A DNA stretch of 64,000 nt from NCBI GenBank assembly GCA_014155875.1, contig JACEFZ010002092.1, positions 558,001-622,000 of the forward strand. Reading direction: 5' to 3'. The notes below the pieces were generated by a model. That model did not search any database. It was not told the origin of the DNA and was given only the letters and a program-made list of their open reading frames with translations. Of the stretch, positions 6,346-57,984 are shown one piece after another (position 1 is the first letter of the stretch; every line of letters begins with the position of its first letter). The position numbers and the translations under genes were made by a program. The DNA is from Cepaea nemoralis. Lineage: Eukaryota; Mollusca; Gastropoda; Stylommatophora; Helicidae.

Positions 6346-6439
6346 TCTCTATATATAGATGCCTTTTTGCATCGTGTGTGCGTGCATCATCAACATTCTC
6401 AACTGCAAGCACAATCAAGCAAGTCACCTAAACAAGTCA

Positions 6440-8974: not shown

Positions 8975-11900
8975 CTGCACAGTCTGTTACTGCAGACTCA
9001 ACGGAATCTTACCTCTCAACCAGCACGTGTCTAGCACACGTCACATCAGAAAGGTTGAGATTAAGAAAGCTGCTCTCAGGAGTCGCAGTTCCAATCTGTC
9101 AGACAGTACCAGCCATCAAGTCTGCACATCTCAACATGAAACCAGTGCTACTCATTTGAGTACAGAACAAGACACAGTGAACCTGAATCCTCTGGGACTT
9201 GGTGATGGGATTCAGGTTTTACAGTTCCAGAATACACCATTGCCTAGTTTTGTCAGACCAGGTCAGGTGTCAGATTTAACACGGGGTGTAAATATATCGC
9301 AGGAGGAGACTTATTCATCTGCTGCAGCAATGAACATTTTTTCTTTGCAGCCACAGAGGGGACCTAACGGTGAGGCTTATGGTATGATGGGTGGCAAGGG
9401 TTTCTGCTATATCTGTAATATTGAACTGACATCACAGCAGCATTGTCAGCAGCATATTAAAGGTAGCAGACATATTAAAAAGGATAAAGATATCACAAGT
9501 CTCCTACCTAACTCTCAACCAGGAAATGCACACCTGTTAAATCCAGCCCAGATCTTGCCCCCCCAGGAGCATGTTAGAGTAGTTAATAACGGAGGTCCCA
9601 ATGGAAGTGTGTATGATGTCCTTGGACCAGGTGGCCATTGTTATGTTTGTAATGTTGTGTTTACTTCGACACGGCTTGCAAATGAACACATTGCAGGCCA
9701 GAAGCACAGAAAGAAAGTTGCATCGCAGAATTTACTCGACTTTGGTGATCATAAGTTTTCGGGAGTTGTCAGTTCTGAACAGCCTGCCAGAGTGACCTCC
9801 AGTGCAGGTCCTTCAGGTGATGTTTCTTCAAGTGTGATCAATTCTTGGCAGACAGTAGGCCATGGATTCAATGCTGCTGATCATATTCCATCTGTTACAA
9901 CCAGTTCAGAACAAATCGGTCGGGTTGGTAATGCTTCTCCTGTTAGAAGAGATTCCAGGCAGATTGAAGAATACACCATGGCAGATGTCATTACTGCTGG
10001 CCACACTCCTAAACACAATACTGGTGTGACATCAGGTATGGACAGACCTGGACAAACCACAGCTCTTGCTTTGACAAATGCTCTTAATTCTAAACTGTCC
10101 CATGACTATATTTCAAATAATTTTGGTTCTGGAGTGCTTTCTGGCAATATCCCACCACATATAGCTACTTCTGGACAAATTACTAGGTTTGCAGCGTCCA
10201 CTGGTATTGGTTTAGCTCCACAACTTGTACCCTCCAGGGGTCCAAATGGAGAGCCCTATATGATGAATGGGAACAGAGGATACTGTTACATTTGTAAGTT
10301 AGAGCTCACGTCTGCATCACATGCTCAGTCTCATATAACGGGCAAGAAGCATAAAAAGAAAAACTGGGAAGAAATGAGTGGCAGTGTGGTGAACACGTCA
10401 GCTGATGGAATTCTGTCTTCAGACAAGAGTGGAGTTCTCATGTGCTCAATCTGCAATGTGCCATTTTCTTCTCCTGAAAATGCCAGGCAGCATTTCATGA
10501 GTGACAGACATAGGAAGAAACTCTCATATATACCCAGCAATTTTACAGGTGAAAATGTGCAGGAAACTAACCCTGAGCAGGTAGGGGTGATGAAGGTGTA
10601 TCATCCACCCGCTGAGATGCCGGCACAAGTTGTCACATATTCACATGGTCTCATCAAAGATTTAAAAACCTCTTTTGAACAAGAGCAAGGTGAGCAACCA
10701 TTTGCACCAAACAGAGAGTTCCGGAAAAGTTCTAGCACTGAGGCTTATGTTATGAACGATGACCGGGGTTCTGGCTCTGTCTATAATGTTGAAGTAACAT
10801 CACCGCAACAATTCAGACAACACATTGAGGAAAGCAAACACATAATTGAAAAGGAATCTTTCAGTTTAAAGTCACTTGAAACTGTTGATCCTGAACAAAC
10901 AAAGGTTATGAAATTATATGATTCAACTGATCAGATATCTGTGCACAGTAATTCACATGGTCTCATTACAGATATTACTAACACAATTGAAAATGCTGAA
11001 CTGCAGATAAAAAGTGAGCATCTCGTGCCACCAAGTGGGGGGCTGCCGACAGAAGCTAACACTGAGACTGATGTTATGAGTGACAACAGAGATACCTGCG
11101 GTGTTTGCAATACTGAACTAACATCACAAGACATCCAGGTTCACAAAAATATTGACAAAGTAAACGAATTATTAAGTGAAAAATCACGTGAAACTGTTGA
11201 TTCCAAGCAGTCACAGATAGTGGGGATAAATCAGTCTCAAGTTCAGAATGTACCTGGTATTCCTGAATCTGATCCTTTAAAGGCACTTGGAAGTTTTAAT
11301 AATAGCATAGGGAATTCCACATCAATAAATCAGCGCTCCAAGCCACCATTATTGCCTTCTGTTGCATATTCTATTACACACGGTATTCCTGAAACTGATC
11401 CATTGAAGACACTTGGAAGTTTTCATATGACCATAGGGAATTCCACATTGATAAACCAGCCCTCCAAATCACTGTCGTTCCCTTCTGTTGCATATTCTAA
11501 TATTACAGAGGAAGAATATTCGTTACCTGCAAATACTAATTCCTCAGAAACTAACGCATCGGATCCTGTCTTGAGTATGACTGTCTCTGATAGCGTGATT
11601 AAATCAGAAACATCTGAACAAAGCAACTCTGCAACCAGCAATACCCAGACTAAATATATGCTTCAGAATGATAATCTGAGCAACCAGCGGAAGGAGCCAT
11701 TGAAAGTTGGAAACAAAGAAATAGCTCACTCAAATGATTTTGCTGAGCATGGTAATCTTGGCAGCCAACAGAAGGAACCATTGAAAGTTGAACGCAAAGA
11801 AATAGTTCACTCAAATGATTATGCAGAGCATGGTAATCTCAGCAGCCAACAGAAGGAGCCATTGAAAGTTGAACACAAAGAAATAAACTCAATTACAGGG

Positions 11901-14038
11901 CATGATAATCTCAACCACCAACATAAGGAGAAGGAGGCATTGAAAGTTGAAAGCAAAGAAATAAACTCAATTGCAGGGCATGATAATCTCAACCGCCAAC
12001 ATAAGGAGAAGGAGCCATTGAAAGTTGAAAGCAAAGAAGTAAACTCAATTGCAGGGCATGATAATCTCAACCGCCAACATAAGGAGAAGGAGCCATTGAA
12101 AGTTGAAAGCAAAGAAATAAACTCAATTGCAGGGCATGATAATCTCAACCGCCAACATAAAGAGAAGGAGCCATTGAAAGTTGAAAGCAAAGAAATAAAC
12201 TCAATTGCAGGGCATGATAATCTCAGCCGCCAACAGAAGGAGCCATTGAAAGTTGAAAACAAAGAAATAGCTCACTCAAATGATTATGCAGAGCATGATA
12301 CTGCTAGTTACAACAGCATAACCGAAAACAACAGCATAACCGAAAACAACAGCATAACCGAAAACAATCAGCAACCTTCAGAAATACCTTCTTCAGAAGA
12401 TAGCAAGTATAATTTGTCTTCTCCAACACAACCTGGTGGAATCCAGCCAAGATCCTATCATAGCTCTGTAAGTTCAAGTATTTACTCAGCTCCAGATTCA
12501 AGATATTTGGTTGGAGAGACCTCACCAATTGACAAAATCTCACTTTCAAATGACAAGTTGGCCGTAAAATCTGTTTATCCTTTGACAGATCCTGGTGAAA
12601 TCCAACAGTCACCCCAGCATAACCCTGATTCATTTTCAAGATTAGACCCTTTGCATGCTTCAAACAAGGTGTCGTCAAATGCAGTCCCCTCACACACCCA
12701 GCGTTTACCTCTAAATGGTAGTTTGGAAAGTTCCATTCCAACCAAATCTGTACCATATCATTTTAATGGCTCAAACGGCTACTGCTTTTGTTGTTCTGTA
12801 GAGCTAACATCTCTTAAGCATGCAAATCAACATCTATATGGCCAGAAGCATAAAAAGAGATTAGGGCAATGGGAGCTGACATCTGCATTTCAGAATGGAC
12901 TGACCTCCGCATTTCAGAATGGACTGACCTCTGCATTTCAGAATGGACTTACCTCTGCATTTCAGAATGGACTGACCTCTGCATTTCAGAATGGACTGTC
13001 TCAGCAGACCCATCCACCTTCAGAACTGCCAGCCCAACAACATACTGAAACTGAAGACAACTCCTATTATTTCAATGGCGACAGGGGTTTTTGCCACGTT
13101 TGTAACATTGAATTAACCTCCTTACAGCATGCACAACAACATACACGTGGAAAGCCACACAAACGTGCAAGAGAAAGATTTAACAAGTCTCAAAATGGAG
13201 TTGTATATCCTCTAAATTGCCAGATTTGCAGTAAGCTCTTCACTGGCCAGGAGAGTGCTCAGCAACATTTCACTTCAGCCAAACATAAAATCAGGGCAGA
13301 TGTCTTGAATGAATCTGCTGTAGTTTTGTCGGTTGTAGATGAAGGGCGAGTCGTCATGAAAGATGGCCAGCTTTGGCATGTCTGTGATGTTTGCAAAGTA
13401 GCCATGAATACAAGGGAACAGTTTTTATTCCATAGAGAGTCTCTTAAACACAAGAAAGAATGTGAAAATGCTAATAGAATCTCATTTTCTGAAACTCTAG
13501 AAGTTAACAATCATGTGATTACGCCTGACCCATCAAATGGCAGCATGAGAACTTCCAGCCGTTCAAGTAGTTCAAGACCTTCCAGTGTGGAAACTGTACA
13601 GGATGAGCTGGACCTGGCTGTGAATAGATCACTGCAAGCCAAATTTGAAGATCTACAGATTCAAGATGATACTAACAAGCAACGAGTGTTGGATGAAAAT
13701 CGCCATTATTTGACCTATGGGCAGGTCGCAGTCAACAGCCAGGACATTGGTAAAGTTGCTAGTTCAGGTCAGCATGTGGCCAATGAGGACATTCCTGTAT
13801 TTGCTGGTTCAGATCAACTGCTAATCAGCCGGAACGCTCCTGTAGTTGCTGGCTCAGGTCGACCATTGATCAATCTGGATATTGCTAAAGCTGCTAGTTT
13901 AGCTCAACTGTTGAGCAGGTCATAACACTCCTGTTGTTGCTGGTGCTCATCAATCATTGTTCAGCCGGGACACTGCCACAGGTGCCGGTTCAGGTCAACC
14001 ATTGTCCAGCCAGGGCATTCCAGTAACTACAGGTTCAG
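8975..14038 (+). CDS. Exon 1: zinc-finger array (9 intact, 2 decayed fingers)
   Basis: The acceptor is TTTATTTAACAG ending at 8974 (phase 2); it is chosen because the first finger begins at once after it. Intact C-x2-C-x12-H-x5-H fingers lie at 8976-9044, 9405-9473, 9639-9707, 10284-10352, 10443-10511, 12783-12851, 13092-13160, 13218-13286 and 13383-13451. Decayed ones lie near 10773-10841 (both Cys lost) and 11097-11165 (last His lost). Several fingers are preceded by a GPNGxxY...G-aromatic-C lead-in, so the array grew by duplication. Linkers are rich in Ser, Asn, Gln and Lys and contain tandem peptide repeats. The frame stops with TAA at 13923, but homologous 15-residue repeats continue in the +1 frame to a CAG|GTCAGT donor at 14038 whose phase (1) fits exon 2. 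Known: fingers of this spacing (ZNF346/JAZ, ZFR, ZMAT3) bind dsRNA; the RNA role here is inferred. Confidence 0.88.
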
Positions 14039-20000: not shown

Positions 20001-20375
20001 TTCACTTCCCAGGATATCTCCTGGCATCCACTTTAGGTTGGGTTGACCTGGGAGTCAAAACCCCACATCATTTGGGATTCTAACGCTTGGACCACTGGAC
20101 TGGCAGGCAGGCAACCTGGTCACTTATGTGTGTCCGGGAAAATATTGATCTTAACATTCACAGTGAATGATCAAATATTATTTTGGTGACATTCCTGTCC
20201 AATTCATAAACATTTGAGGTGTTCAAGTATTGGCATGCCTTTAGTCGATTTTCATCAGTTGTCAACGTCTTTTAATTTTTGTGTTGGAGAGAGCCATAAT
20301 AAAATGAGAGAAAACCTCCCAAAACTTGACTAATATTTGATCATTTCTTTGTGAGTGGCTTGGCCAGAATTCTGC

Positions 20376-20452
<77 letters not shown>

Positions 20453-23400: not shown

Positions 23401-25243
23401 ACATATACACATGCACATACACAATCATACACGCACATACACACAATCATACGCACACATACAATCATACGCACATACATACTCATGCACTCATACACAC
23501 ACACACACACATTCATACACACATGCACTCATACACATACACACACTCATACACATATGTATACACACACACACACATTCATACACACATGCACTCATAC
23601 ACAAACATACACACTCATACACATGTACACATACACACAATCATACGCACACATACAATCATATGCACATACATACTCATGCACTCATACACACACACAC
23701 ACACATTCATACACACATGCACCCATACACATACACACACTCATACACATATGTATACACACACACACATTCATACACACATGCACTCATACACAAACAT
23801 ACACACTCATACACATGTACACACACACACATACACACACTCATACACACACACTCATACACATGCTCATACACACACATACACACACACTCATACACAC
23901 TCATACACACACACACTCATACACACACACACTCACACACACACACACACTCATACACACAAACATACACACACTCATACATAAACACGCACTCATACAC
24001 ACACGCACTCATACACACATGCACTCATACACACATGCAATCATACACACAAACATACACACTCATATACACACATGTACACACACATACACATGCACGT
24101 ATACACACGCATATACAGATGTACACACACACATGCATATACAGATGTACACACACACATACATATACAGATGTACACACACACATGCATATACAGATGT
24201 ACACACACACATGCATATACAGATGTACACACACACATACATATACAGATGTACACACACACATGCATATACAGATGTACACACACACACATACATATAC
24301 ATGCACACACATACACATGAACATACATATATACATATACACTCAAATGCAGATACACGCACATACACACCCATGCATACACATGCACGCACATACACAC
24401 ACACACATGATATACACATACTTGCACATACACACGCAGACTCACATGCACACATATACACATGCACACAGACACACATGTACGTGCACATACAGACACG
24501 CACCCATACACATGGGTCAGTCAGAAAGTAATTCGCCACATGGTTTTTTTTTTCTCAGCAAATAATACATGCAATTTTGCACAATTTAAATTTGCACCAA
24601 ATTAGGATAGTTAGAACAGCTACAGTAATCAGTTAAAGTGGAGTGTGTGAACAATTTGCGTTACAAACACTAGTTTGTAATAGAATGTTTGGGTGCGGAA
24701 AAAGAATCTTGTGAACATTCCCAAACATTTGCGTGCATGAAAGTTGTGCATTCGACAGAAAGTTAGTCACTGGGCTCAAGTTTCAGAAAGTGAAGAGATG
24801 GGGCTACAAGATCTTTCTATAGCTCCAATCTGGCTTCTTCTGATTTTAATCTTTTTGGTCCACTTAAAAGTGCACTACGTGGGGCAATATCTGATGATGA
24901 TGATGAGGGTGTGATTCGTGCAGTTAAGAAATGGCTATGATAGCAGGACAAAACCTGGTACAATCAAGACATGTATGCACTTGTTTCACGCTGGTATAAG
25001 GCCCTACAAGTTTATGGGGATTATGTAGAAAAATATTTTTAGAGGAAATGTTCACATATAATGTTTGTATATTTCATTAATTTTTCAGTGTTTCTAAAAA
25101 ATACATTTATGGTGCATAGCGTTCAGACCTCAATAATGGATAACTTTCGCATGCATGTGTGCGAGGAGAGAGAGTGAGTGTGTGTGTGAGAGAGAGAGAG
25201 AGAGTGAGATAGAGAATGAGAGTGGGTGTATGTGGGTGGATGT

Positions 25244-25283
<40 letters not shown>

Positions 25284-55200: not shown

Positions 55201-57984
55201 ATGTTGATGACAGTGTAGACAGTGATGTTGACAGTGCGGACAGTGATGTTGACAGTGTGGACAGTGATGTTGATGACAGTGCGGACAGTGATGTTGATGA
55301 CAGTGCAGACAGTGATGTTGATGACAGTGCAGACAGTGATGTTGATGACAGTGCAGACAGTGATGTTGATGACAGTGCAGACAGTGATGTTGATGACAGT
55401 GGGACAGTGATGTTGATGACAGTGCTGGCAGTGATGTTGATGACAGTGCAGACAGTGATGTTGATGACAGTGCGGACAGTGATGTTGATGACAGTGGACA
55501 GTGATGTTGATGACAGTGTGGACAGTGATGTTGATGACAGTGTAGACAGTGATGTTGATGACAGTGTAGACAGTGATGTTGATGACAGTGTAGACAGTGA
55601 TGTTGATGACAGTGTGGACAGTGATGTTGATGACAGTGCGGGCAGTGATGTTGATGACAGTGCAGACAGTGATGTTGATGACAGTGCAGACAGTGATGTT
55701 GATGACAGTGCAGACAGTGATGTTGATGACAGTGCAGACAGTGATGTTGATGACAGTGCAGACAGTGATGTTGATGACAGTGCAGACAGTGATGTTGATG
55801 ACAGTGGGACAGTGATGTTGATGACAGTGCTGGCAGTGATGTTGATGACAGTGCAGACAGTGATGTTGATGACAGTGCGGACAGTTATGTTGATGACAGT
55901 GGACAGTGATGTTGATGACAGTGTGGACAGTGATGTTGATGACAGTGTAGACAGTGATGTTGATGACAGTGTAGACAGTGATGTTGATGACAGTGTAGAC
56001 AGTGATGTTGATGACAGTGTAGACAGTGATGTTGATGACAGTGCGGGCAGTGATGTTGATGACAGTGCGGGCAGTGATGTTGATGACAGTGTGGGCAGTG
56101 ATGTTGATGACAGTGCGGACAGTGGTGTTGATGACAGTGAGGACAGTGATGTTGATGACAGTGCGGACAGTGATGTTGATGACAGTGCGGACAGGGATGG
56201 TAATGTTAGGTTGACAGGGAAGGTGATGGGAGTGTTAGGTTGACAGGGAATTTGATGGGAATGTTAGGTTGACAGGGAAGGTGATGGGAATTTTAGGTTG
56301 ATAGTAATGGAAATGTTAGGTTGACAGGGATAGTAATGGGACTGTTAGGTTGACAGGGAAGGTGATGGGAATGTTAGGTTGACAGGGATAGTAATGGGAA
56401 TGTTAGGTTGACAGGGATAGTAATGGGAATGTTAGGTTTACAGGGAAGGTGATGGGAATGTTAGGTTGACAGGGATGGTAATGGGAATGTTAGGTTGACA
56501 GGGAAGATGATGGGAATGTTAGGTTGACAGGGATAGTGATGGAAATGTTTGGTTGACTGGGAAGGTGATGGGAATGTTAGGTTGACAGGGAAGGTGATGG
56601 GAATGGTAGGTTGACAGGGAAGGTGATGGGAATGTTAGGTTGACAGGGAAGGTGATGGGAATGTTAGGTTGACAGGGAAGGTCATGGGAATGTTAGGTTG
56701 ACAGGGATAGTAATGGGAATGTTAGGTTGACAGGGAAGGTGATGGGAATGTTAGGTTGACAGGGATAGTAATGGGACTGTTAGGTTGACAGGGAAGGTGA
56801 TGGGAATGTTAGGTTGACAGGGAAATAATGGGAATGTTAGGTTGACAGGGATAGTAATGAGAATGTTAGGTTGACGGGGGTATTAATGGGAATGTTAGGT
56901 GGATAGAGAAGGTGATTGGAATGTTAGGATGACAGTAAAGACGCTATTATGACTTGCCAGTAAAGACGCTATGACTTATTTTGGCAATAAAGATGCTATG
57001 ACTTGTGTTGGCAATAAAGACGCTATGACTTATGTTGGCAATAAAGACGCTATGACTTATGTTGGCAATAAAGACGCTATAACTTATGTTGGCAATAAAG
57101 ACGCAATAACTTATGTTGGCAATAAAGATGCTATAGCTTGTGTTGGCAGTAAAGATGCTATGGCTGTTATATTGGCAATAAAGACGCTATGGCTGTTAAC
57201 ATTGGCAATAAAGACGCTATGACTTATGTTGGCAATAAAGACGCTATGACTTATGTTGGCAATAAAGACGCTATAACTTATGTTGGCAATAAAGACGCTA
57301 TAACTTATGTTGGCAATAAAGATGCTATAGCTTGTGTTGGCAGTAAAGATGCTATGGCTGTTATATTGGCAGTAAAGATGCTATGGCTGTTATATTGGCA
57401 ATAAAGACGCTATGGCTGTTAACATTGGCAATAAAGACGCTATGGCTGTTAACATTGGCAATAAAGACGCTATGACTTGTATTGGCTGTAAAGACACTAT
57501 GGCTGTTATATTGGCAATAAAGATGCTATGATTTGTGTTGGCAGTAAAGATGCTATGGCTGTTACGTTGGCAATAAAGACGTTATGACTTACGTTAGCAG
57601 TAAAGGTTCTAGGACCGTTATGTTGGCTGTAGGCACTGAGACTGTTGAACAGTATGACATTGACAGTAAAAATAAATTATTGATAACTTGGAATATATGA
57701 GATGTTCCTTATTTGTCTCTGATAGATACCACATCCTGGTGGCAACCTCAATCATGGAGGAAGGTATTGACATTCAAGCTCTTCAACTGGTAGTCTGCAT
57801 GAACCCACCAAACAGTCTGCGGGCCTTGGTACAGATGCGAGGTAGAGCACGAAGGGGCGACAGCCATTTTGTGGTCCTGTGCAGCAGTCAGGAGGATGTG
57901 GATAAGCTTAACAGTCTTCAGAAGCAAGAGCAGAACATGCAGGAGGCAGCCAAATTGTGTCTGGCGGAATCCAAGAAGTGCTGA
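8975..57984 (+). CDS. U1-type zinc-finger array fused to RIG-I/Dicer-type DExH helicase; 11 exons in window, 5' end missing
   Basis: Seen: exons 8975-14038, 16688-17047, 17097-17714, 18334-18487, 20647-20771, 25434-25673, 30343-30590, 35616-35846, 40925-41029, 47887-48113 and 57726-57984 join in phases 1,1,1,2,1,1,0,0,0,2, each with AG acceptors and GT (once GC) donors. The product is at least about 2,540 residues: an N-terminal part with nine intact C-x2-C-x12-H-x5-H fingers separated by Ser/Asn/Gln-rich linkers, one more finger, then a helicase with motifs I, II (DEVH), III (TASP), a helical insert and VI (QMRGRARR). Known: this motif set and insert define the RLR/Dicer helicase group, and U1/JAZ-type fingers often bind dsRNA. 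Inference: a cytoplasmic dsRNA-binding ATPase in antiviral sensing or RNAi. Exon 1 has one frame break near 13919. No RNase III, PAZ, CARD or RLR C-terminal domain is seen. The true start lies upstream of the window or in an unrecognised exon. Confidence 0.85.
11251..11500 (+). repeat. Coding duplication, 43-44 residues x2
   Basis: Two adjacent units beginning GIPESDPLKALGSF and GIPETDPLKTLGSF, each ending PSVAYS, lie in exon 1. They are diverged enough to be older than the 78-bp array. Confidence 0.85.
11670..12290 (+). repeat. Coding tandem repeat, 78 bp (26 residues)
   Basis: Inside exon 1, a 26-residue unit containing HDNLNRQHKEKEPLKVESKE recurs about six to eight times, the central copies almost identical in DNA with a strict 78-bp period (for example 11921 and 11999). 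The frame is preserved throughout. The charged Lys/Glu-rich unit looks helical. Copy number is likely variable between individuals. Confidence 0.93.
12875..12994 (+). repeat. Coding tandem repeat, 24 bp x5 (LTSAFQNG)
   Basis: Five near-identical 24-bp units in exon 1 encode LTSAFQNG directly after a zinc finger. LTS is the same tripeptide found in the finger core (ELTS), suggesting the unit arose by slippage from the finger's end. Each unit contains CTGCATTTCAG, which resembles a splice acceptor. Confidence 0.92.
13743..14038 (+). repeat. Degenerate coding repeat, 45 bp (15 residues)
   Basis: About six or seven units of 45 bp (pattern DI-x-V-x-AGSGQPL-x-S) close exon 1. The first four are in the main frame; the rest continue in the +1 frame after a 4-nt excess near 13919-13922. 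The continuity of the repeat across the frame break shows that the downstream part was coding. Confidence 0.8.
14550..14665 (-). repeat. 3' half of SINE family 1
   Basis: The reverse strand reads TTCAGAAAGCATTGGCAAAC, then GTTGACTGCATTGTCC. It is diverged from other copies. Confidence 0.6.
14690..15150. repeat. Satellite, 29-bp unit with higher-order structure
   Basis: About 15 units of TTGTGCTATATATTTGTCAC plus a variable 9-bp linker (GTGTAAG, GAGTAAG, GATATAT, GTGTATA types). The linker order repeats as a six-unit block: GTGTAAGTT begins at 14726 and again 174 bp later. Confidence 0.95.
15385..15595 (-). mobile_element. LINE family A 3' end with (GGAT)n tail
   Basis: The plus strand starts with repeated ATCC, then CATGTGCCATGCCGATAAGC and the inverse of the family A ORF2 end. 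It is shorter and more decayed than the copies at 5376 and 8576. Confidence 0.72.
16110..16690. repeat. Diverged satellite of ~50-65-bp units
   Basis: About ten units built on TTGTGTGCATTGAAGTTACA and AGAGGCAACATTGGTATTCC, running up to the exon 2 acceptor. Its last unit supplies the acceptor sequence (GTGTATTGCAG). Confidence 0.88.
16688..17047 (+). CDS. Exon 2: low-complexity Ser/Thr/Gln-rich linker
   Basis: It is bounded by acceptor TGTATTGCAG at 16687 and donor ATCAG|GTGGAA at 17047, phase 1 on both sides (360 nt). It encodes about 120 residues of disordered Ser/Thr/Gln/Ala-rich sequence with no recognised domain, linking the zinc-finger array to the finger-plus-helicase exon. The exon is supported by phase agreement on both sides and by codon-like composition; the same DNA in other frames soon stops. 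If the 49-nt intron that follows is not removed, the frame ends at TAA 17104. Low-complexity sequence makes homology hard to judge, so this exon is a little less certain than the helicase exons. Confidence 0.75.
17048..17096 (+). other. Intron 2: predicted 49-nt mini-intron
   Basis: GTGGAA...TTCTCTTTCTAG with a branch-point-like ATACTAAAG and a pyrimidine tract; phase 1 on both sides restores a Gly codon. Without removal the frame stops at 17104. Confidence 0.7.
17097..17714 (+). CDS. Exon 3: acidic linker, U1-type zinc finger, helicase Q-motif region and first half of Walker A
   Basis: It starts after TTCTCTTTCTAG and ends at CCACAG|GTGAGG (phase 1 both sides, 618 nt). Order of features: Ser/Asn-rich segment, a basic RSRGNERR patch, an acidic run (EEDDEFNDDYEEE), a Pro/Val stretch, an intact finger at 17450-17518 (C-P-I-C ... 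H-V-K-G-K-N-H), a second cysteine pair (CKVC), then TPRFYQIELV and GDCIIYLPTG. The last two are the Q-motif-like RxYQxEL and the start of motif I of RLR/Dicer helicases. This exon is the key evidence that fingers and helicase belong to one protein, because both lie in one uninterrupted frame. The intron after it cuts the Walker A loop between LPTG and TGKT. Confidence 0.93.
17715..18333 (+). other. Intron 3, splitting the Walker A loop
   Basis: Phase 1. It holds a ~60-bp imperfect repeat (17815-17955), a LINE C end (17953-18193) and a 20-bp TTTATGTTTGATCAG repeat (18243-18325) reaching the acceptor. Confidence 0.88.
17953..18193 (+). mobile_element. LINE family C, ORF2 C-terminus with (GAT)n tail
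   Basis: It encodes GHVVRREALESIVTTGKIKG, RGRGRPREIMLDGLRQWHGG and MNAYASWQGT then TGA, with a (TGATGA)n tail. The frame is open over the whole fragment, so this is a fairly young copy. Confidence 0.85.
18334..18487 (+). CDS. Exon 4: helicase motif I (GTGKT) and motif Ia
   Basis: Acceptor TTTTATCAG at 18333; donor AAGAG|GTTAGT at 18487 (phase 1 in, phase 2 out, 154 nt). It encodes TGKTLVAVLTMGLML, completing the ATP-binding P-loop begun in exon 3, then RPVLFLVDKVLLVMQQAQYI, the motif Ia segment of RLR/Dicer helicases where a conserved Val/Pro-x-x-x-Leu-V-x-QQ run contacts RNA. The chosen donor is the one whose phase joins exon 5. A stronger-looking GTAAGG donor 23 nt downstream (18510) would break the frame. 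A duplicated 42-nt unit lies just beyond, inside the intron. Confidence 0.92.
18820..19010 (+). repeat. SINE family 1
   Basis: It has TTGGAAGCAGA..., ATACAATGG-like and GAAAGCAATGGCAGACTGCC segments typical of the family. Confidence 0.7.
19050..19830 (-). mobile_element. mariner transposase remnant
   Basis: The reverse strand encodes VLFMHDNTRHHIAAQTVNTL and HPAYSPDFVPYEYHIFGPLK, spanning the second and third catalytic positions of a DD34D transposase. The third Asp is replaced by Glu (VPYEYHIF). Other parts are broken by stops. Confidence 0.82.
19960..20135 (-). repeat. tRNA-derived SINE, family 5-like
   Basis: The reverse strand has an A-box-like CCAGTGGTCCAAGCG and B-box-like GGGTTTTGACTCCC, then a G/T-rich body like 39945-40150. 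Confidence 0.5.
20379..20565. repeat. (GA)n microsatellite
   Basis: A pure GA run decaying into GAGAGTGA and GAGTTT variants. Confidence 0.97.
20647..20771 (+). CDS. Exon 5: helicase motif Ib/Ic segment, GC donor
   Basis: Acceptor TTTGTTACAG at 20646 (phase 2); the exon ends at GCAG with GCAAGG following (phase 1, 125 nt). It encodes a basic segment, then VKPICGG, and LPVWKHDIVVTTA, the position of the conserved xDIxVxTxQ strand of RLR/Dicer helicases. Joined to exon 6 it reads VVTTA-AYCANML without a gap. The donor is a GC-AG type: the only GT nearby (20759) would put exon 6 out of frame and delete the conserved TTA. Confidence 0.88.
21095..21375 (-). repeat. Dispersed repeat A, inverted copy
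   Basis: It matches 3296-3560 on the opposite strand, with about 70-80% apparent identity by eye. Class unknown. Confidence 0.7.
21398..21706 (+). pseudogene. Unidentified 103-codon ORF, possibly element-derived
   Basis: An AT-rich frame ends RLSKQALENIITYFFAK. A segment RPCRNMFFNDISSDIHNETL followed by QIYLKMGVEFEYPSKNIVRL has the look of a short alpha/beta domain (a strand, then D-I-H-N-E-T-L-Q-x-Y-L), as in RRM-like parts of LINE ORF1 proteins, but I cannot identify it. It has no splice phase that fits the host gene. May be chance. Confidence 0.25.
22325..22520 (+). repeat. SINE family 4, diverged
   Basis: TGCTCTGAAGATCATTTTCAGACC resembles the family 4 B-box region at 43420, and GGAGGTGGCTTGTC matches its body. 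Confidence 0.45.
22830..22975. repeat. CT, CA and GA microsatellite runs
   Basis: CTCT-rich sequence, then a CA run, then a GA run. Confidence 0.85.
23160..24510. repeat. CA-rich satellite (CATACACA family), 1.35 kb
   Basis: TCATACACACAC-type sequence with larger duplicated blocks, and a 26-bp ATGCATATACAGATGTACAC-type array at 24100-24290. Long open frames on both strands (His/Thr and Cys/Val) are artefacts. Confidence 0.97.
24510..25110 (+). mobile_element. mariner remnant
   Basis: It starts with GGGTCAGTCAGAAAGTAAT, the usual mariner terminal motif, right after the CA satellite. Near 24830 it encodes SNLASSDFNLFGPLKSALRG (third catalytic Asp region) and a C-terminus like WYKALQVYGDYVEKYF. 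The middle is deleted. The 3' terminal repeat is not clear. Confidence 0.78.
25165..25300. repeat. (GA)n/(GAAA)n microsatellite
   Basis: GA runs with GTGT interruptions, ending in GAAA repeats, 130 bp before the exon 6 acceptor. Confidence 0.95.
25434..25673 (+). CDS. Exon 6: helicase motifs II (DEVH) and III (TASP)
   Basis: Acceptor ACCATTCCAG at 25433; donor CTTG|GTAAGG at 25673 (phase 1 both sides, 240 nt). It encodes FSLVVLDEVHHC, the Walker B/DExH box (DEVH, where RLRs and Dicer usually have DECH), and KVLGLTASPAG, motif III coupling ATP hydrolysis to RNA movement. Between them HPYHRLMSTYH matches the family's conserved H-x-Y-x-x-I/L-M segment. All catalytic residues needed for ATP hydrolysis in domain 1 are present, so the enzyme is probably an active ATPase. 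Confidence 0.96.
25790..25985 (-). repeat. tRNA-derived SINE, family 5
   Basis: The reverse strand has CCAGGCCAGTGGTCAGGGGTTCAAATTCG (A/B-box region), then the GACTTGGAATG...GGGAACCAGG body also found at 39945-40150. Confidence 0.6.
25990..26402 (-). repeat. tRNA-derived SINE, family 3, with GATGAACGCAGAAGAAG tail
   Basis: The reverse strand starts with GGAGCCGTGGTGTTAGTGG and B box GGGTTCAATCCC, and ends in CCGGATGAACGCAGAAGAAG. The same 3' end closes the retroelement at 45440-47025 and its truncated copy at 31633-32310. Confidence 0.8.
27090..27690 (-). mobile_element. LINE ORF2 C-terminal part, outer element of a nest
   Basis: The reverse strand encodes LWQYGCESWLFHKSAEKHI and LLRQTELRTMKYFGQVKVHE, a decayed form of the post-RT region of LINE ORF2. 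It continues on the far side of a younger plus-strand LINE (27700-28262). Confidence 0.65.
27700..28262 (+). mobile_element. LINE family B ORF2 C-terminus, inserted in another LINE
   Basis: It encodes IYKTLIRPVVLYGSETWSTT, LLQTFENKVLRRIFGPFRD and, after a frame shift near 27930, NRLQWLGHIERMEDNRETKL, RRPRGRPRRRWRDNIHTDLQ and a terminal LNGSEC. Often annotated in databases as craniofacial development protein 2-like; it is a retrotransposon end. A copy lies inverted at 36955-37255. Confidence 0.85.
28300..28810 (-). mobile_element. LINE reverse-transcriptase core, outer element of the nest
   Basis: The reverse strand encodes TGSQGCILSSYLFNLYCENI and MRNIHES, RT motif B and the following helix. 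Together with 27090-27690 it forms one older minus-strand element split by the family B insertion. Confidence 0.7.
28935..29170 (+). repeat. SINE family 1, near full length
   Basis: Head GCCGGCTCCGTGGTGAAGGG (A box) and CTTTCAAAACA (B-box relic), central TTCAGAAAGCAATGGCAGCA, 3' end CATCCTGTAAAGGATACAC and tail ACTAACTAACT. The best plus-strand copy of the family here. Confidence 0.82.
29584..29680 (-). mobile_element. LINE family A extreme 3' end
   Basis: (CAAT)n then CATGTGCCATGCC and GGGCGGTCATGACTCGCC, the inverse of the family A terminal segment. Confidence 0.7.
29985..30242 (+). mobile_element. LINE family C end, decayed, with (GAT)n tail
   Basis: TATTTTGGCCACATTGTGAG and TGTGATAACTGGAAGGATTT match the GHVMRR / IVTTGK region, and GGCACTTGATGATGATG the tail. 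Many stops. Confidence 0.7.
30262..30335. repeat. 18-19-bp tandem repeat next to the exon 7 acceptor
   Basis: Four units of ATCTAAATGTAATGACAC type. Confidence 0.9.
30343..30590 (+). CDS. Exon 7: end of helicase domain 1 and start of helical insert
   Basis: Acceptor GTATATTGCAG at 30342 (phase 1) and donor AGAGAG|GTCAGC at 30590 (phase 0, 248 nt). It begins GGASVAVVED and contains VCVPMSSKEIVFKKYLLE and a Leu-rich helical stretch. After motif III, RLR and Dicer helicases insert a helical domain (Hel2i) that grips dsRNA; the length, charge pattern and position fit, though sequence similarity here is always low. Assignment rests mainly on phase agreement with exons 6 and 8. Confidence 0.85.
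31633..32310 (-). mobile_element. 5'-truncated copy of the 45440-47025 retroelement
   Basis: The plus strand starts with the inverted tail TTCTTCTTCTGCGTTCATCC and matches the last ~690 bp of the 45440-47025 element in order (CCATGAGCAGGACGTG, CAGAGCTGTTCC and GGGCATTTTTAATGAGGTTA on the appropriate strand). The 5' ribozyme part is missing, as expected for target-primed truncation. Confidence 0.8.
32735..33790 (+). mobile_element. mariner transposase, full span but interrupted
   Basis: It starts MAGLIQNPFKEW, has the HTH part (CRPVDIHQRMQAKCGNKC; FDVSIGTIQKVV), GDESWCHHFEPSSKRESMQ, RGVILLHDNARPHVAK and HPAYSPDLSPCDF. All three Asp of the DD34D triad are present. At least five stops or frame shifts disable it. 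Known: such transposases cut and paste at TA. Confidence 0.88.
34065..34300 (-). repeat. SINE family 1
   Basis: Inverse of TTGCCAAGACATCAAC..., AGCAATGGCAAACTACTGAA and a tRNA-like head (GGCTTGCGGACGCAATTCG / CATATTCGAAACACAGC). Confidence 0.75.
34540..34875 (+). repeat. GC-rich block ending in (AAGC)n; possible retroelement 3' end
   Basis: A block clearly richer in GC than its surroundings ends CACAAGCTAGCAAGCAAGCAG, a short tail typical of LINE/SINE insertions. No coding motif or tRNA head was recognised. Confidence 0.35.
35249..35490 (-). mobile_element. LINE family D 3' end
   Basis: Nearly identical to 51640-51880: tail AGTTAGTTAGTCGACAGATC, then the end of ORF2 (KRGVAKQEHYAGSQRRLINQ, YTLRDLLRRGSEHLWTEWF on the reverse strand). 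Confidence 0.88.
35616..35846 (+). CDS. Exon 8: helical insertion (Hel2i-like) of the helicase
   Basis: Acceptor TTATTGACAG at 35615 and donor ACTGAG|GTGAGA at 35846, phase 0 on both sides, 77 codons. It encodes amphipathic helical sequence (FQLAEQFIRDPEPL, EVLDVIHRARCIYEADVAG, LRLHICQLLLIIPEVG). No catalytic motif is expected in this part. It corresponds in position to the insert between the two RecA-like domains of RLR/Dicer helicases. Being a symmetric phase-0 exon, it could be skipped without a frameshift. Confidence 0.87.
36955..37255 (-). mobile_element. LINE family B ORF2 C-terminus
   Basis: The reverse strand encodes WLGHIERMEDNRETKLAYTQ, RRPRGRPRRRWRDNIHTDLQ and LNGSEC, followed by a (GAA)n tail. 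The frame is open. The best-preserved family B copy here. Confidence 0.88.
37940..39095 (+). mobile_element. LINE family A, RT core to 3' end
   Basis: It encodes LCFIDYTKAFYKVRHIDIRM (RT motif A), VMSPDLFSLYSENIFRNIED (motif B), NIRYADDS (motif C) and later HVMRKNNLQNLVTTGKIEGK with the (GGAT)n tail. Frame shifts follow YADD and occur elsewhere. It is the longest family A copy in the window and shows that the short ends at 5376, 8576, 15385 and 62485 belong to a LINE with this RT. Confidence 0.87.
39248..39503 (-). mobile_element. Internal-deletion derivative (MITE) of the 41069 mariner
   Basis: Its two ends match, inverted, the first ~60 bp and last ~190 bp of the element at 41069-41996. 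Terminal sequences are GTCAGTTAATAAGTAAGTCAC and the inverse of GTGAGTCAATAAGAAAGT. The whole coding middle is missing. Confidence 0.85.
39553..39640 (+). mobile_element. Small mariner fragment
   Basis: CACTGAAAACCCACCTTGG to AAAACGTGGTTTAGAAA repeats 41736-41817 almost exactly, on the same strand. Confidence 0.85.
39650..39695 (-). repeat. Fragment of dispersed repeat B
   Basis: CCTAGACCAGTTGCCAACC and TAGTCTTTAGGTTGCATT match the repeat at 59390-59690 and, inverted, 50090-50165. Confidence 0.6.
39945..40150 (+). repeat. tRNA-derived SINE, family 5
   Basis: A-box-like TAGGGTAGTGATTAGATG, B box GGTCATGGGTTCGAAC, then GACTTTAAATTGATCTGGG and GGTACCAGGAATGGCTTAGG. A piece of the head is duplicated. 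Confidence 0.7.
40925..41029 (+). CDS. Exon 9: short symmetric exon of the helical insert
   Basis: Strong acceptor (long T run then TTTTTTCAG) ending at 40924 and donor GTAGAG|GTAAAG at 41029. It is exactly 35 codons, phase 0 on both sides. It encodes EYKKMGLPCDQIYQRAKRF and a short acidic helix ending KLVE. No domain is recognised on its own; its identity comes from strict splice sites, phase and the helical character shared with exon 8. Like exon 8 it can be skipped in frame. Confidence 0.82.
41069..41996 (+). mobile_element. mariner element with both terminal inverted repeats
   Basis: Left end GTGAGTCATTAAGTAAGTCACA and the inverse of the right end (AAGTCAATAAGTAAGTCACAAA) form the repeats. 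It encodes VTEDESWLHHYQPKSKRASI, GKVMLAVFWDCQGVLLTNFK, RGVLLLHDNSRPHTARLTQK and HPPYSPDLAPSTFPHF. The third catalytic Asp is replaced (APST instead of APSD) and the N-terminal DNA-binding part is deleted, so it is inactive. Inserted 40 bp after exon 9. Confidence 0.9.
42040..42480 (-). mobile_element. LINE ORF2 post-RT fragment
   Basis: The reverse strand encodes INKFKYLATIQTS, CVTKINSRVGQGKAAFQKMK and a decayed RMMSIPWTV, matching the region after the RT palm in family A-type LINEs. Confidence 0.65.
43082..43295. repeat. Tandem repeat, ~56 bp x4
   Basis: Units read AAACTGTTACATGTGCACTA, TTTCAAGTTCC and CATCATCATCACACAATAG, with small length changes in the CAT run. Confidence 0.93.
43379..43690 (+). 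repeat. tRNA-derived SINE, family 4
   Basis: Head GGCTCTGTGACGAAGTGGTC and GAAGGTCGTGGGTTTATTTTC after a poly-G run (43356-43378). A 24-bp unit CTCTCAGCAGGTGGCTTGTG is present three times inside (43531-43595). Confidence 0.75.
43720..43910 (+). repeat. 5' part of SINE family 2
   Basis: GGTTCAACTCCTGGACTAAAATG and TACAAGTACCTCTAAAGTC match 50755-50845. Its 3' part may be the piece at 44629-44790, displaced by later insertions. Confidence 0.6.
44040..44290 (-). repeat. SINE family 1, near full length
   Basis: The reverse strand has a tRNA-like head (GCCGGCTCTGTGGCGGAGGT), central CAGAAAGCGATGACAAACCA and the GAAGGACATGCAGCTAAC 3' end. Confidence 0.82.
44629..44790 (+). repeat. 3' part of SINE family 2
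   Basis: GATGGCAAGGGGCACTGGTA, TCAGTCCAGGGCACTA and GGACTACGCTTGAGTTCAAA, shared with 1986 and 50855. Confidence 0.72.
44887..45300 (-). repeat. tRNA-derived SINE, family 6
   Basis: The reverse strand begins TGAGTGGTCTCAAGGTATGG with B box CCTGGGTTCAGGCCC and ends in CGACTAAACTAAACT. Its last ~75 bp resemble the 3' end of LINE D. A second copy faces it at 45402. Confidence 0.85.
45440..45570 (+). ncRNA. HDV-like self-cleaving ribozyme (predicted)
   Basis: P1 45440-45446 (TTCCCCC) pairs with 45471-45477 (GGGGGAG), 7 bp. P2 45449-45456 (TGTGTCTC) pairs with 45563-45570 (GAGACACA), 8 bp. P3 45458-45460 (ACC) pairs with 45468-45470 (GGT), enclosing loop TTGCCGC. P4 45490-45498 (TCTGACTCC) pairs with 45548-45556 (GGGGCCAGA) with one mismatch. 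The joining strand starts with C45557 then TAA, the place of the catalytic cytosine. Strand order P1-P2-P3-P3'-P1'-P4-P4'-P2' is that of the HDV fold. Cleavage would fall before 45440, the exact insertion edge. Known: such ribozymes form the 5' ends of R2 and RTE-type elements. Confidence 0.75.
45440..47025 (+). mobile_element. 1,586-bp non-autonomous retroelement with 12-bp target duplication
   Basis: Flanked by identical GTGTCCGCTTCG (45428-45439, 47026-47037). It ends CCGGATGAACGAAAAGAAGAA, an A-rich tail, and starts with an HDV-like ribozyme fold. No reverse transcriptase or long ORF was found. The right half holds two diverged direct repeats of ~330 bp (46110-46440 and 46690-47015) around several GGAACAGCTCTGAC units. 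The shared 3' end with SINE 3 suggests both use the same LINE machinery. Confidence 0.88.
47550..47701. mobile_element. Hairpin MITE with ~60-bp inverted repeats
   Basis: Left arm 47550-47610 and right arm 47639-47701 are near-perfect inverse copies (AGGGTGTATTTTTAATGACT against AGTCATTAAAAATACACCCT), separated by 28 nt. TA-rich flanks suggest TA target use. Lies about 185 bp before exon 10. Confidence 0.92.
47887..48113 (+). CDS. Exon 10: start of helicase domain 2 (motif IV region)
   Basis: Acceptor TTGCCTGTTGCAG at 47886 and donor GAAAA|GTTAGT at 48113 (phase 0 in, phase 2 out, 227 nt). It encodes SRALVLVRERKRARQYCLKL, the motif IV strand and following helix of the second RecA-like domain, then LRVGHIVGHGKGAKDGGMDV and KKQRRVFDNHEK. 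These match the RLR/Dicer pattern of a Gly-His-Gly loop followed by Q-x-x-V/I-x-x-F before the ATSxxEEGxD motif. A 61-bp tandem array starts only about 20 nt past the donor. Confidence 0.93.
48135..48690. repeat. 61-bp tandem array starting beside the exon 10 donor
   Basis: About nine units of TGCAAATGTATTTTGTTAGC, AGTATATATTGTATATTAAT and CAACCTCTTTCCATATTTTC; later units shorten by small deletions. Confidence 0.95.
48790..49560 (-). mobile_element. LINE family E: RNase H region and 3' end, decayed
   Basis: The plus strand TTTCTCAAGGCCAGAAGGTTTG...GGAGTATGTGATCTG matches 61450-61545, and the reverse strand retains DLWIRVY of the RNase H domain near 49500. A 24-bp unit TTTTATTTGGGTATTCTCCTAG is triplicated at 49378-49445. 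Confidence 0.75.
49600..50170. repeat. Dispersed repeat B with a 223-bp tandem duplication
   Basis: CTTAGTCCTCACATGCA, GTCTTAGTCAGATATGAC and GACAGTAGACGGTACTACC recur 223 bp apart (for example 49738 and 49961). The right copy goes on with CACATTGTGCCAATGGCTTC and TTGGTTGGCAACTGATCTAG. An inverted copy lies at 59390-59690. Confidence 0.85.
50690..51370 (+). repeat. tRNA-derived SINE family 2, split by a LINE fragment
   Basis: Head GTCAGCATGGCCGAATGG (A box) and GCGGGTTCAAACCC (B box), with 5' GTCAG able to pair with CTGGT beyond the B box as in a tRNA acceptor. The body runs to 50945 (GTGTATGAAC), then resumes after a LINE insert at 51318 (CGTATGGACTACACTCGAG). It is not a functional tRNA: no intact anticodon arm. 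Confidence 0.78.
50950..51318 (+). mobile_element. LINE family F 3' end with C-terminal C2H2 finger
   Basis: It encodes THGCSHCEANRTARDVKKRL and YPHCQRAFRAKISLTSHLRT-H, the finger that ends many molluscan and other animal LINE ORF2s (CPHCQRxFRAKIGLxSHLRTH), followed by TAA and a short tail. Here the first Cys of the finger has become Tyr (YPHC). Confidence 0.85.
51640..53240 (-). mobile_element. LINE family D: RT and partial RNase H, I-group type
   Basis: The reverse strand from 53240 down encodes AAIDLEDAYNRVPLDFLM (RT motif A), GLPQGSPLSPVLFNAY (B), LSYADDVLVY (C) and LGIRFDRSLAYNVHINQVIK in one open frame to 52111, then, after a frame change, CFLSDSMNMIKMIEEG and FIFMPGHAGVQGNERADKLA of RNase H and the terminal DLLRRGSKHLWTEWF. 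The first half of RNase H (TDGS and E) is deleted near 52130. The 3' tail is (CTAA)n at 51640. Known: RNase H-bearing non-LTR elements belong to the I group. Confidence 0.9.
53325..56195. repeat. Satellite, 24-bp unit, 2.9 kb
   Basis: About 120 units of GTTGATGACAGTGTAGACAGTGAT, with GTGTAGAC dominating to about 54890 and GCAGAC/GCGGAC/GTGGAC variants after it. A 405-bp block near 55290-55700 is repeated at 55695-56105. Plus-strand DSDVDDSV frames and the long minus-strand frame are repeat artefacts inside an intron. Confidence 0.98.
56195..56930. repeat. Satellite, 29-bp unit
   Basis: About 25 units of GGGAATGTTAGGTTGACAGG plus GAAGGTGAT or GATAGTAAT, directly following the 24-bp array. The two unit subtypes are interleaved. 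Confidence 0.97.
56935..57620. repeat. Satellite, 27-bp unit
   Basis: About 25 units of TTGGCAATAAAGACGCTATG plus ACTTATG or GCTGTTA, ending 105 bp before the exon 11 acceptor. Confidence 0.97.
57726..57984 (+). CDS. Exon 11: helicase motifs V and VI and C-terminus
   Basis: Acceptor TTTGTCTCTGATAG at 57725 (phase 2). It reads YHILVATSIMEEGIDI (motif V), then CMNPPNSLRALVQMRGRARR (motif VI, with the arginine finger) and a short helical tail ending in KKC and TGA at 57982-57984. Motif VI QMRGRARR is diagnostic of the RLR/Dicer group (QxRGRAR) rather than DEAD-box or FANCM-type helicases. The protein ends about 50 residues past motif VI, so neither a Zn-binding RLR C-terminal domain nor Dicer PAZ/RNase III follows. 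Nothing resembling those domains was seen in the 6 kb downstream. No clear poly(A) signal close by was identified. Confidence 0.96.

What the first reader, a model, noticed from the sequence alone, without database searches (positions are those of the whole stretch)
8975..57984. Zinc-finger array fused to a RIG-I/Dicer-type helicase
One gene joins ten intact U1/JAZ-type fingers, a class known to bind dsRNA, to a helicase with the full RLR/Dicer motif set (GTGKT, DEVH, TASP, ATSxxEEGID, QMRGRAR) and a helical insert. I know RLRs with CARDs and a C-terminal domain and Dicers with PAZ and RNase III, but not this arrangement. It would combine multivalent dsRNA capture with an ATP-driven dsRNA translocase. 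Exon 3 alone holds both a finger and the Q motif, so the fusion does not depend on the frame break in exon 1.
Basis: partly seen in the sequence, partly recalled or inferred. Interest (0 to 1): 0.95.

Follow-up and report, generated by a model that had tools for sequence, protein, structure and literature searches.

The report
Zinc-finger dsRNA helicase outside RIG-I/Dicer
A gene, likely from a land snail, carries ten zinc fingers of a kind that elsewhere binds double-stranded RNA in front of a helicase motor that, in our trees, is kin to but separate from the virus sensor RIG-I and the RNA cutter Dicer; relatives occur in animals from a sponge to acorn worms, and the protein is predicted to grip and move along double-stranded RNA and likely acts in RNA silencing or antiviral defence.

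Summary
The window's six frames hold exactly ten Cx2Cx12Hx5H fingers, all in this gene (shuffles: mean 0.15, max 1), and a complete DExH helicase. Eleven exons (8975-57984) can splice in one frame into 2,452 aa; the "frame break" is bypassed by an in-frame donor at 13767. The protein ends right after the helicase: no CARD, RIG-I C-terminal domain, PAZ or RNase III.

The arrangement is not unique: proteins from molluscs, a brachiopod, hemichordates, a crinoid, corals, a sponge and a flatworm share it, often unnamed or called "Dicer-like" or "RIG-I-like". The last finger lies 72-85 residues before motif I in 42 of 47 measurable proteins. Some coral-type members add a Z-alpha domain.

Phylogeny gives one finger-helicase clade (100/99) whose sister holds Dictyostelium dsRBD-helicases (HelF, by architecture; 92/88). 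It is neither RLR nor Dicer, though the deeper order is not decisive. So the fusion is supported; the RLR/Dicer label is not. Function is inferred: multivalent dsRNA capture feeding an ATP-driven duplex motor on the RNA-silencing side. The searches run found no description of the family.

The parts
8975..13767 (+). Exon 1 of the model: nine U1/JAZ-type fingers and long linkers (alternative donor at 14038 lies beyond the stop at 13923-13925)
   Evidence: acceptor TTTAACAG|CTGCAC (sequence); donors listed; zf-met/jaz hits; 2,452-aa joined frame
8976..9044 (+). Finger 1 (weakest; likely the family's first finger)
   Evidence: matches residues 12-42 of Nucella P0009, E 1.3e-5; not aligned
9405..9473 (+). 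Finger 2 (no counterpart in register in 12 gastropod proteins; similar fingers in all 12)
9639..9707 (+). Finger 3
   Evidence: zinc ligands kept in 10 of 12 gastropod proteins
10284..10352 (+). Finger 4
10443..10511 (+). Finger 5; fingers 4-5 are the stretch that aligns to RNA-binding ZFa, PDB 1zu1 (weak, E 0.019)
11668..12297 (+). In-frame coding tandem repeat (78-base unit) in the linker between fingers 5 and 6
12783..12851 (+). Finger 6
13092..13160 (+). Finger 7
13218..13286 (+). Finger 8
13383..13451 (+). Finger 9
16688..17047 (+). Exon 2 (linker); 3' end uncertain
   Evidence: acceptor TTGCAG; options
17097..17714 (+). Exon 3: linker, anchor finger 10 and Q motif; 5' end uncertain
17450..17518 (+). 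Finger 10 (anchor finger), 85 residues before motif I
18334..18487 (+). Exon 4: rest of motif I (LPTGTGKT spans the 17714/18334 junction)
20647..20771 (+). Exon 5 (GC donor)
25434..25673 (+). Exon 6: DEVH (25499-25510) and TASP (25601)
30343..30590 (+). Exon 7: start of the insert between the lobes
   Evidence: 78% identity to Candidula P0002; sites
35616..35846 (+). Exon 8: insert
40925..41029 (+). Exon 9: insert
47887..48113 (+). Exon 10: motif IV region of lobe 2
   Evidence: 89% identity to P0002; sites
57726..57984 (+). Exon 11: motif V (ATSIMEEGID), motif VI (QMRGRAR 57832-57852), pincer start, stop TGA at 57982-57984

Best explanation
In one predicted splice model the gene encodes ten U1/JAZ-type zinc fingers followed by a complete duplex-RNA-type helicase core and nothing after it; it belongs to a conserved animal family whose nearest relatives in our trees include dsRBD-helicases of Dictyostelium (likely HelF), and it is predicted to capture double-stranded RNA with the fingers and to move along it with ATP, likely controlling how much dsRNA reaches RNA silencing. 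Shown: finger and helicase anatomy, conservation, clade, absence of CARD, C-terminal RNA domain and nuclease. Inferred from the families named: the distal fingers raise affinity for long dsRNA, and the anchor finger, held 72-85 residues before motif I in most members from corals to snails, hands the duplex to the motor. Inferred and untested: with no nuclease or signalling domain the output is on the RNA itself (unwinding, stripping or shielding it from Dicer, or feeding it to Dicer).
For: Ten fingers, all Cx2Cx12Hx5H, against 0.15 expected; 331 of 340 finger matches in 53 relatives have that exact spacing. The only solved structures matched by the finger array at E up to 1 are ZFa and ZNF346, weakly (E 0.019, 0.06); that both bind dsRNA is recalled. 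Against 12 gastropod proteins fingers are 46-82% identical and linkers 14-46%, with the helicase at 40-88%, so both ends are constrained together. Motifs in 56 non-coral members, window included: I 53, II 55, III 51, V 49, VI 55. 53 of 55 with a readable motif VI, window included, end 39-60 residues after it. Trees: family clade 100/99, sister dsRBD-helicases 92/88. Relatives of the same motor carry other N-terminal RNA readers: dsRBDs (P0060, P0147, P0166) or, in some coral-type proteins, Z-alpha. HelF: 837 aa, dsRBD 2-76, DEXDc, HELICc (PMC4894637 passages), titled a nuclear suppressor of RNAi (title in a reference list).
Against: No biochemical data exist in my calls: dsRNA binding, ATPase and translocation are all untested, and U1-type fingers also occur in splicing proteins (recalled). 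No structure could be predicted. Deeper placement is not decisive: grouping with Dicers is not rejected (p 0.194; 0.222). The insert between the lobes resembles that of RLRs (probability 64%) and RdRP-helicases (60%) more than that of the four HelF-type rows (0.5%) or Dicers (2%), which does not favour the HelF link. HelF identity rests on architecture and length (844 against 837 aa), and HelF knock-out did not change miRNA processing. Of six full-length coral-type members 0 keep QxRGRxR, so ATP-driven movement may not be common to all. The exon 1 end and exon 2/3 junction lack transcript proof; fingers 1 and 2 are not in register with relatives.
Confidence: 0.5

Rival explanations
1. It is an RLR-like cytosolic virus sensor that signals: the fingers replace the RIG-I C-terminal domain, and signalling runs through a partner rather than through its own CARDs.
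For: Helicase core of the RIG-I/Dicer kind; insert of RLR-like size, and of the four groups compared its profile is nearest to the RLR insert (probability 64%, E 6e-5); some records name relatives 'RIG-I-like'; some coral-type members carry Z-alpha, a domain of nucleic-acid sensors.
Against: No CARD, no RIG-I_C-RD in the window exons scanned or in P0002; family outside RLR+DRH in three trees, together rejected at p 0.021 and 0.049, though 0.098 with HelF-types included.
Confidence: 0.2
2. It is a trans-acting partner of Dicer: a stand-alone motor that supplies the dsRNA translocation which Dicers without a working helicase lack.
For: Dictyostelium Dicers lack a helicase, which sits on RdRPs instead (PMC4894637 passages); Hydra, Nematostella and Dictyostelium RdRPs carry it while those Dicers lack it (PMC4791657 passages); some mollusc Dicers are said to have degenerate ATPase motifs (PMC10159624 passage).
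Against: No mollusc Dicer was examined here; a Hydractinia Dicer (P0099) does have helicase domains; the one studied relative, HelF, is described as a suppressor (title only).
Confidence: 0.2
3. The fingers and helicase serve nuclear RNA processing or DNA, not dsRNA defence.
For: U1-type fingers are named after the splicing protein U1-C (recalled); zf-U1 and SF3a60-like hits appear weakly; HelF is described as nuclear (title); NCBIfam's best, below cut-off, is archaeal Hef nuclease (that library holds bacterial and archaeal families).
Against: Pfam's best finger models are zf-met and the dsRNA-binding jaz family; solved chains score best for an ancestral Dicer helicase (2.7e-34) and RIG-I (4.8e-23), lower for the archaeal helicase 1wp9 (1e-20) and FANCM (4.5e-15).
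Confidence: 0.1
4. Exon 1 fingers and the helicase are two genes or a decaying fusion, joined only by the reader.
For: Frame stop at 13923-13925 and the odd exon 2/3 junction.
Against: In-frame splice solution for both; same order in single proteins and compact contigs of many species; exon 3 alone holds a finger and the Q motif.
Confidence: 0.04

Closest known systems
HelF of Dictyostelium discoideum (P0166 by architecture; PMC4894637, passages)
   Same: Same helicase branch (sister clade 92/88), dsRNA-binding module in front of the helicase, no CARD, PAZ or RNase III hit
   Different: One dsRBD instead of ten zinc fingers; about 150 residues after Helicase_C against about 40 here; insert not alike by profile
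Helicase-RdRP fusions (Dictyostelium, oomycetes, Hydra, Nematostella: PMC4791657 passages; P0055, P0155 here)
   Same: Related helicase, next branches in trees 2 and 3
   Different: RdRP domain follows; P0155 carries a RIG-I C-terminal-type domain in front; no U1-finger hit in the two scanned
RIG-I-like receptors RIG-I, MDA5, LGP2 and nematode DRH
   Same: DExH core with an insert of similar size; LGP2 lacks CARDs (PMC8659333 passage) and inhibits Dicer (PMC5813259 abstract)
   Different: RLRs have a C-terminal RNA domain and mostly CARDs; separate clade here
Dicer
   Same: Helicase core with helical insert; first hits include Dicers
   Different: No PAZ, RNase III or dimerisation domain; separate clade
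ZNF346/JAZ and ZFa
   Same: Zinc fingers of the same class; the only solved structures matched
   Different: No helicase (recalled); match is weak
ZNFX1 and HELZ (recalled)
   Same: Zinc fingers plus RNA helicase in RNA defence
   Different: UPF1-type helicases and other finger types (recalled); neither name appears in the listings

Membership tests
RIG-I-like receptor | N-terminal CARD pair or other death-fold domain | tested here: not met
   No CARD among Pfam hits for exon 1, exon 3 or P0002; a short N-terminal exon of the window gene is not seen
RIG-I-like receptor | C-terminal RIG-I_C-RD domain | tested here: not met
   Gene stops about 40 residues after motif VI; 53 of 55 members end 39-60 residues after it; P0002 ends at the same place
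RIG-I-like receptor | Helicase inside the RLR/DRH clade | tested here: not met
   Outside in three trees; AU p 0.021 and 0.049, 0.098 with HelF-types
Dicer | RNase III and PAZ domains | tested here: not met
   No hit in the window exons scanned or in P0002; P0002 ends at the same place as the window gene
Dicer | Helicase inside the Dicer clade | tested here: inconclusive
   Outside in three trees, but grouping not rejected (p 0.194; 0.222 with HelF-types)
HelF-type dsRBD-helicase | Helicase sister to or within the clade | tested here: met
   Sister, 92/88; with P0060 alone 96/89; insert profile not alike
HelF-type dsRBD-helicase | N-terminal dsRBD | tested here: not met
   No dsrm hit; zinc fingers instead
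Duplex-RNA-activated ATPase group | Motifs I, II, III, V, VI and insert between lobes | tested here: met
Duplex-RNA-activated ATPase group | ATPase stimulated by dsRNA | not testable with these tools
   Bench assay needed
U1/JAZ-type zinc-finger protein | Cx2Cx12Hx5H spacing and jaz/zf-met profile | tested here: met
   10 of 10 fingers by spacing; Pfam above cut-off for the protein
U1/JAZ-type zinc-finger protein | dsRNA binding | not testable with these tools
   Only weak similarity to solved finger structures

The most novel reading that the evidence does not exclude
This is a further, previously unrecognised branch of the animal dsRNA-helicase system beside RLRs, DRHs and Dicers: an ancient stand-alone motor, shared with amoebozoan HelF, that swapped its dsRNA reader (dsRBD, Z-alpha plus two fingers, or up to 13 fingers) and supplies or withholds long dsRNA for RNA silencing in animals whose Dicer helicase is weak. 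The finger array would act as a multivalent length gauge for dsRNA, the fixed anchor finger as the loader, and the coral form, with Z-alpha and a broken motif VI, as a sensor that no longer moves.
Probability: 0.3. Interest if true: 0.9.

Novelty: new variant of a known kind. Interest (0 to 1): 0.72.

Why it matters
Invertebrate antiviral RNA sensing is usually told as Dicer plus CARD-type RLRs. A conserved further kind of dsRNA helicase, present in molluscs, hemichordates, a crinoid, corals and a sponge and easily missed by surveys that ask for CARD, the RIG-I C-terminal domain or RNase III, would change that inventory. The lophotrochozoan RLR survey (PMC8998645) has no 'zinc', 'C2H2' or 'Dicer' in its main text, and the main text of the Aplysia immunome (PMC9334734) does not hold the symbol of the Aplysia member. 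The family also ties animal genes to HelF, so the role of a free dsRNA motor in RNAi becomes testable in oysters, mussels, Lingula or corals.

Tried and rejected
The exon-1 frame stop need not break the gene. The idea that the architecture is unknown is wrong for sequence databases. An upstream exon with a further finger was looked for: no strict finger lies before 8976, and no hit at E up to 0.01 from the first 110 residues of 15 relatives lies upstream of 8967. A CTD after the stop was considered and dropped because P0002 ends at the same place. A DEx[HN]...HP[YF] signature as a mark of dsRNA helicases was tried and dropped: 29 of 32 family rows but 0 of 13 RLR rows. The guess that NVE23912 of Nematostella was a member was wrong: it is described as a secreted cysteine-rich protein (PMC8476169 passages). 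Alignment search A1 reached only coral-type proteins and one Dicer, so one search was used for breadth. Archaeal relatives beyond one outgroup were not found (3 loci, one the query itself, two short and unused). Rows dropped: tree 2 used 46 of the 68 rows of tree 1 plus the outgroup; tree 3 dropped 11 of those 47 and added 19. I chose them, after seeing tree 1, to thin redundancy and long branches. Pfam on ten other open frames of the window gave transposase or reverse-transcriptase fragments in 3 and nothing in 7; Rfam gave nothing at gathering scores.
Full report
What is there. The window is animal DNA with large, repeat-filled introns. The nearest protein is from the land snail Candidula unifasciata (P0002, 86% identity; 88% and 89% over the helicase columns), so I take it for a stylommatophoran snail; this is inference. 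On the + strand one gene runs from 8975 (or a short exon before it) to the stop at 57982-57984.

Exons. tblastn of P0002 and of the Aplysia relative P0003 placed the helicase exons and most of the fingers, and splice sites fixed the edges: 8975-13767, 16688-17047, 17097-17714, 18334-18487, 20647-20771, 25434-25673, 30343-30590, 35616-35846, 40925-41029, 47887-48113, 57726-57984. The joined frame is 2,452 residues without an internal stop. The stop at the end of exon 1 (13923-13925) is real in the sequence, but a donor CAG|GTCAGC at 13767 joins exon 2 in frame. The exon 2/3 junction is the weak point: a 49-nt intron, a 124-nt one, or a frame shift inside one exon. Tandem repeats inside exon 1 have units of 126, 78 and 24 bases, all multiples of three; among intronic arrays several have 29 or 61 bases, though others have 24, 27 or 48. 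That fits coding linkers but is not proof.

Fingers. Ten matches to Cx2Cx12Hx5H occur in all six frames of the window; all ten are in this gene; 100 dinucleotide shuffles gave 0.15 on average and at most 1. Pfam calls them zf-met and zf-C2H2_jaz, the latter described as dsRNA-binding. The only solved structures matched by the array at E up to 1 are RNA-binding ZFa (1zu1, 0.019) and ZNF346 (2mkd, 0.06); these are weak. In an alignment with 12 gastropod proteins finger residues are 46-82% identical and linkers 14-46%. In that alignment finger 1 keeps its zinc ligands in 0 of 12 and finger 2 has no counterpart in 12 of 12; fingers 3-10 are kept in most. Taken singly, fingers 2-10 each find a similar finger in 9 to 12 of the 12, finger 1 in 1 of 12; its DNA matches the first finger of 7 of 15 wider relatives (residue 7-12) at E up to 0.005.

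Family. One search gave 338 proteins at E up to 0.001 among 7,992 scored candidates (120 listed); one search gave 73 at 1e-30. P0002-P0054 are one family by score and content: gastropods (Candidula, Aplysia, Elysia, Plakobranchus, Babylonia, Nucella, Batillaria, Haliotis, Gigantopelta, Lottia, Bulinus), bivalves (Mytilus, Mercenaria, Ruditapes, Mya, Argopecten, Saccostrea, Solemya and others), cephalopods (Octopus, Argonauta), Lingula, the coral Oculina, the flatworm Macrostomum, and unnamed sources. One search added hemichordates (Glandiceps, Ptychodera), the crinoid Anneissia and the sponge Corticium. Candidates were limited by length and shared words, so absence from other phyla is not shown. 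48 of the 53 proteins P0002-P0054 have at least one strict finger (P0008, P0011, P0016, P0017 and P0023 have none). Of the 47 with a finger and a readable motif I, 42 have the last finger 72-85 residues before motif I, 77 in the coral type; P0024, P0036, P0042, P0050 and P0051 do not by this strict pattern. In the window it is 85. Finger number runs from none to 13. Ends: 39-60 residues after motif VI in 53 of 55 (exceptions P0042, P0145). Public names include 'Dicer-like protein 1', 'endoribonuclease Dicer homolog 1' and 'RIG-I-like', which the domain content does not support.

Transcripts. No RNA of this snail was at hand. In relatives several single-ORF proteins with fingers and helicase come from contigs not much longer than the coding sequence (P0020, P0022, P0032, P0040). 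For a gene with ten introns that points to cDNA; this is inference.

Coral type. Of 23 coral-type proteins 8 match Z-alpha (PF02295) at E up to 0.1 and 7 keep the N..L[YF]...PP.W pattern that I associate with Z-form binding from memory. All 23 match zf-met and jaz at E up to 0.1. Only 6 match Helicase_C; many of the others may be single-ORF reads of genomic contigs cut at an intron. In the six full-length ones motif VI never has the full QxRGRxR, and 4 of 6 keep EEGxD in motif V.

Phylogeny. Tree 1 (68 rows, quick, midpoint root) gave the family as one group, SH-aLRT 99. Tree 2 (47 rows, one archaeal outgroup) gave 100/99, sister P0060 with four dsRBDs (96/89), then RdRP-helicases (96/79), then Dicers (99/93), then RLR+DRH (98/95), with one unnamed helicase, P0061, outermost. 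Tree 3 (55 rows) gave 100/99, with Dictyostelium and Polysphondylium dsRBD-helicases plus P0060 as sister, 92/88; RdRP-helicases fall in three groups beside them, not in one clade. AU tests: family+RLR+DRH p 0.021 and 0.049; with HelF-types added 0.098; family+Dicer 0.194, with HelF-types 0.222; RLR+DRH+Dicer as one group 0.0545; family+RdRP-helicases without HelF-types 0.248. So the family is well supported, its HelF link moderately, the exclusion from RLR moderately, and the order of the deep branches is open. The outgroup is a single long branch, and the profile used to trim rows had one faulty seed.

HelF. P0166 (Dictyostelium, 844 aa, dsrm 4-75, DEAD 239-391, Helicase_C 573-691) fits HelF as drawn in PMC4894637 (837 aa, dsRBD 2-76, DEXDc 228-431, HELICc 608-687; passages). 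The same passages say that helF knock-out left miRNA processing unchanged, that Dictyostelium Dicers lack a helicase, and that it sits on RdRPs. The title of Popova et al. 2006, seen in a reference list, calls HelF a nuclear suppressor of RNAi. That paper was not held.

Mechanism. The parts suggest a loader and motor: a flexible array of dsRNA-type fingers, an anchor finger at near-fixed distance, a helicase with intact motifs and an insert of RLR size (175-281 residues in 29 measured family rows, 176-303 in 15 RLR/DRH rows). By profile the insert is nearest to that of RLRs (64%) and RdRP-helicases (60%), and not alike to HelF-types (0.5%, four rows) or Dicers (2%). Nothing is there to cut or signal. 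I commit to dsRNA capture and ATP-driven movement with an output on silencing, about one in two. Binding, ATPase, direction of effect and compartment are all untested.

Novelty. Their listings were capped (for example 20 of 39 papers, 12 of 119, 12 of 350), and I saw titles and starts of abstracts. None described this family; six gene symbols of members occur in no held paper. I read passages of nine papers and the abstract of one (PMC5813259), no paper whole, and the library lacks most subscription journals, so 'undescribed' means within these searches. The RLR survey of lophotrochozoans has no occurrence of zinc, C2H2 or Dicer in its main text. The 2009 RLR paper's 'zinc finger' is, in the passages seen, the C4 type of the C-terminal domain. 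The Aplysia immunome lists ZNFX1, another zinc-finger helicase, but not this gene.

Not done. Structure prediction and own-genome search were not available, so the fold of the insert, the packing of the anchor finger and any paralogue in this snail are unknown.

Noticed in passing
P0155, P0160: Proteins with a RIG-I C-terminal-type domain, a helicase of a neighbouring branch and a metazoan-type RdRP (PF11648, DEAD, Helicase_C, PF25359, PF05183); in P0155 the RIG-I-type domain is in front. Organism unnamed.
   Followed up: partly
P0047, P0052, P0057, P0122, P0130, P0131, P0133: Z-alpha domain joined to U1 fingers and the helicase in coral-type proteins; motif VI degraded in the full-length members.
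   Followed up: partly
53337-56199: Very large 24-base minisatellite (about 119 copies) inside the last intron, followed by 29- and 27-base arrays up to 57605.
   Followed up: no
41406-41759; 32738-33416: Transposase fragment in an intron (Transposase_1, E 7e-15); a stretch at 32738 looks similar by eye, but the part scanned (32738-32995) has no Pfam hit.
   Followed up: no
38140-38397; 62985-63323 (- strand): Weak reverse-transcriptase fragments below the curated cut-off, perhaps LINE remains.
   Followed up: no
20771: GC-AG intron in a helicase exon, needed for the frame.
   Followed up: partly
6359-7962: Open frames of 187 and 297 aa without Pfam hits; may be another gene.
   Followed up: no
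P0041, P0048: More diverged second members in Babylonia and Nucella (QMRGRTR; the Nucella copy reads GTGNT at motif I).
   Followed up: no
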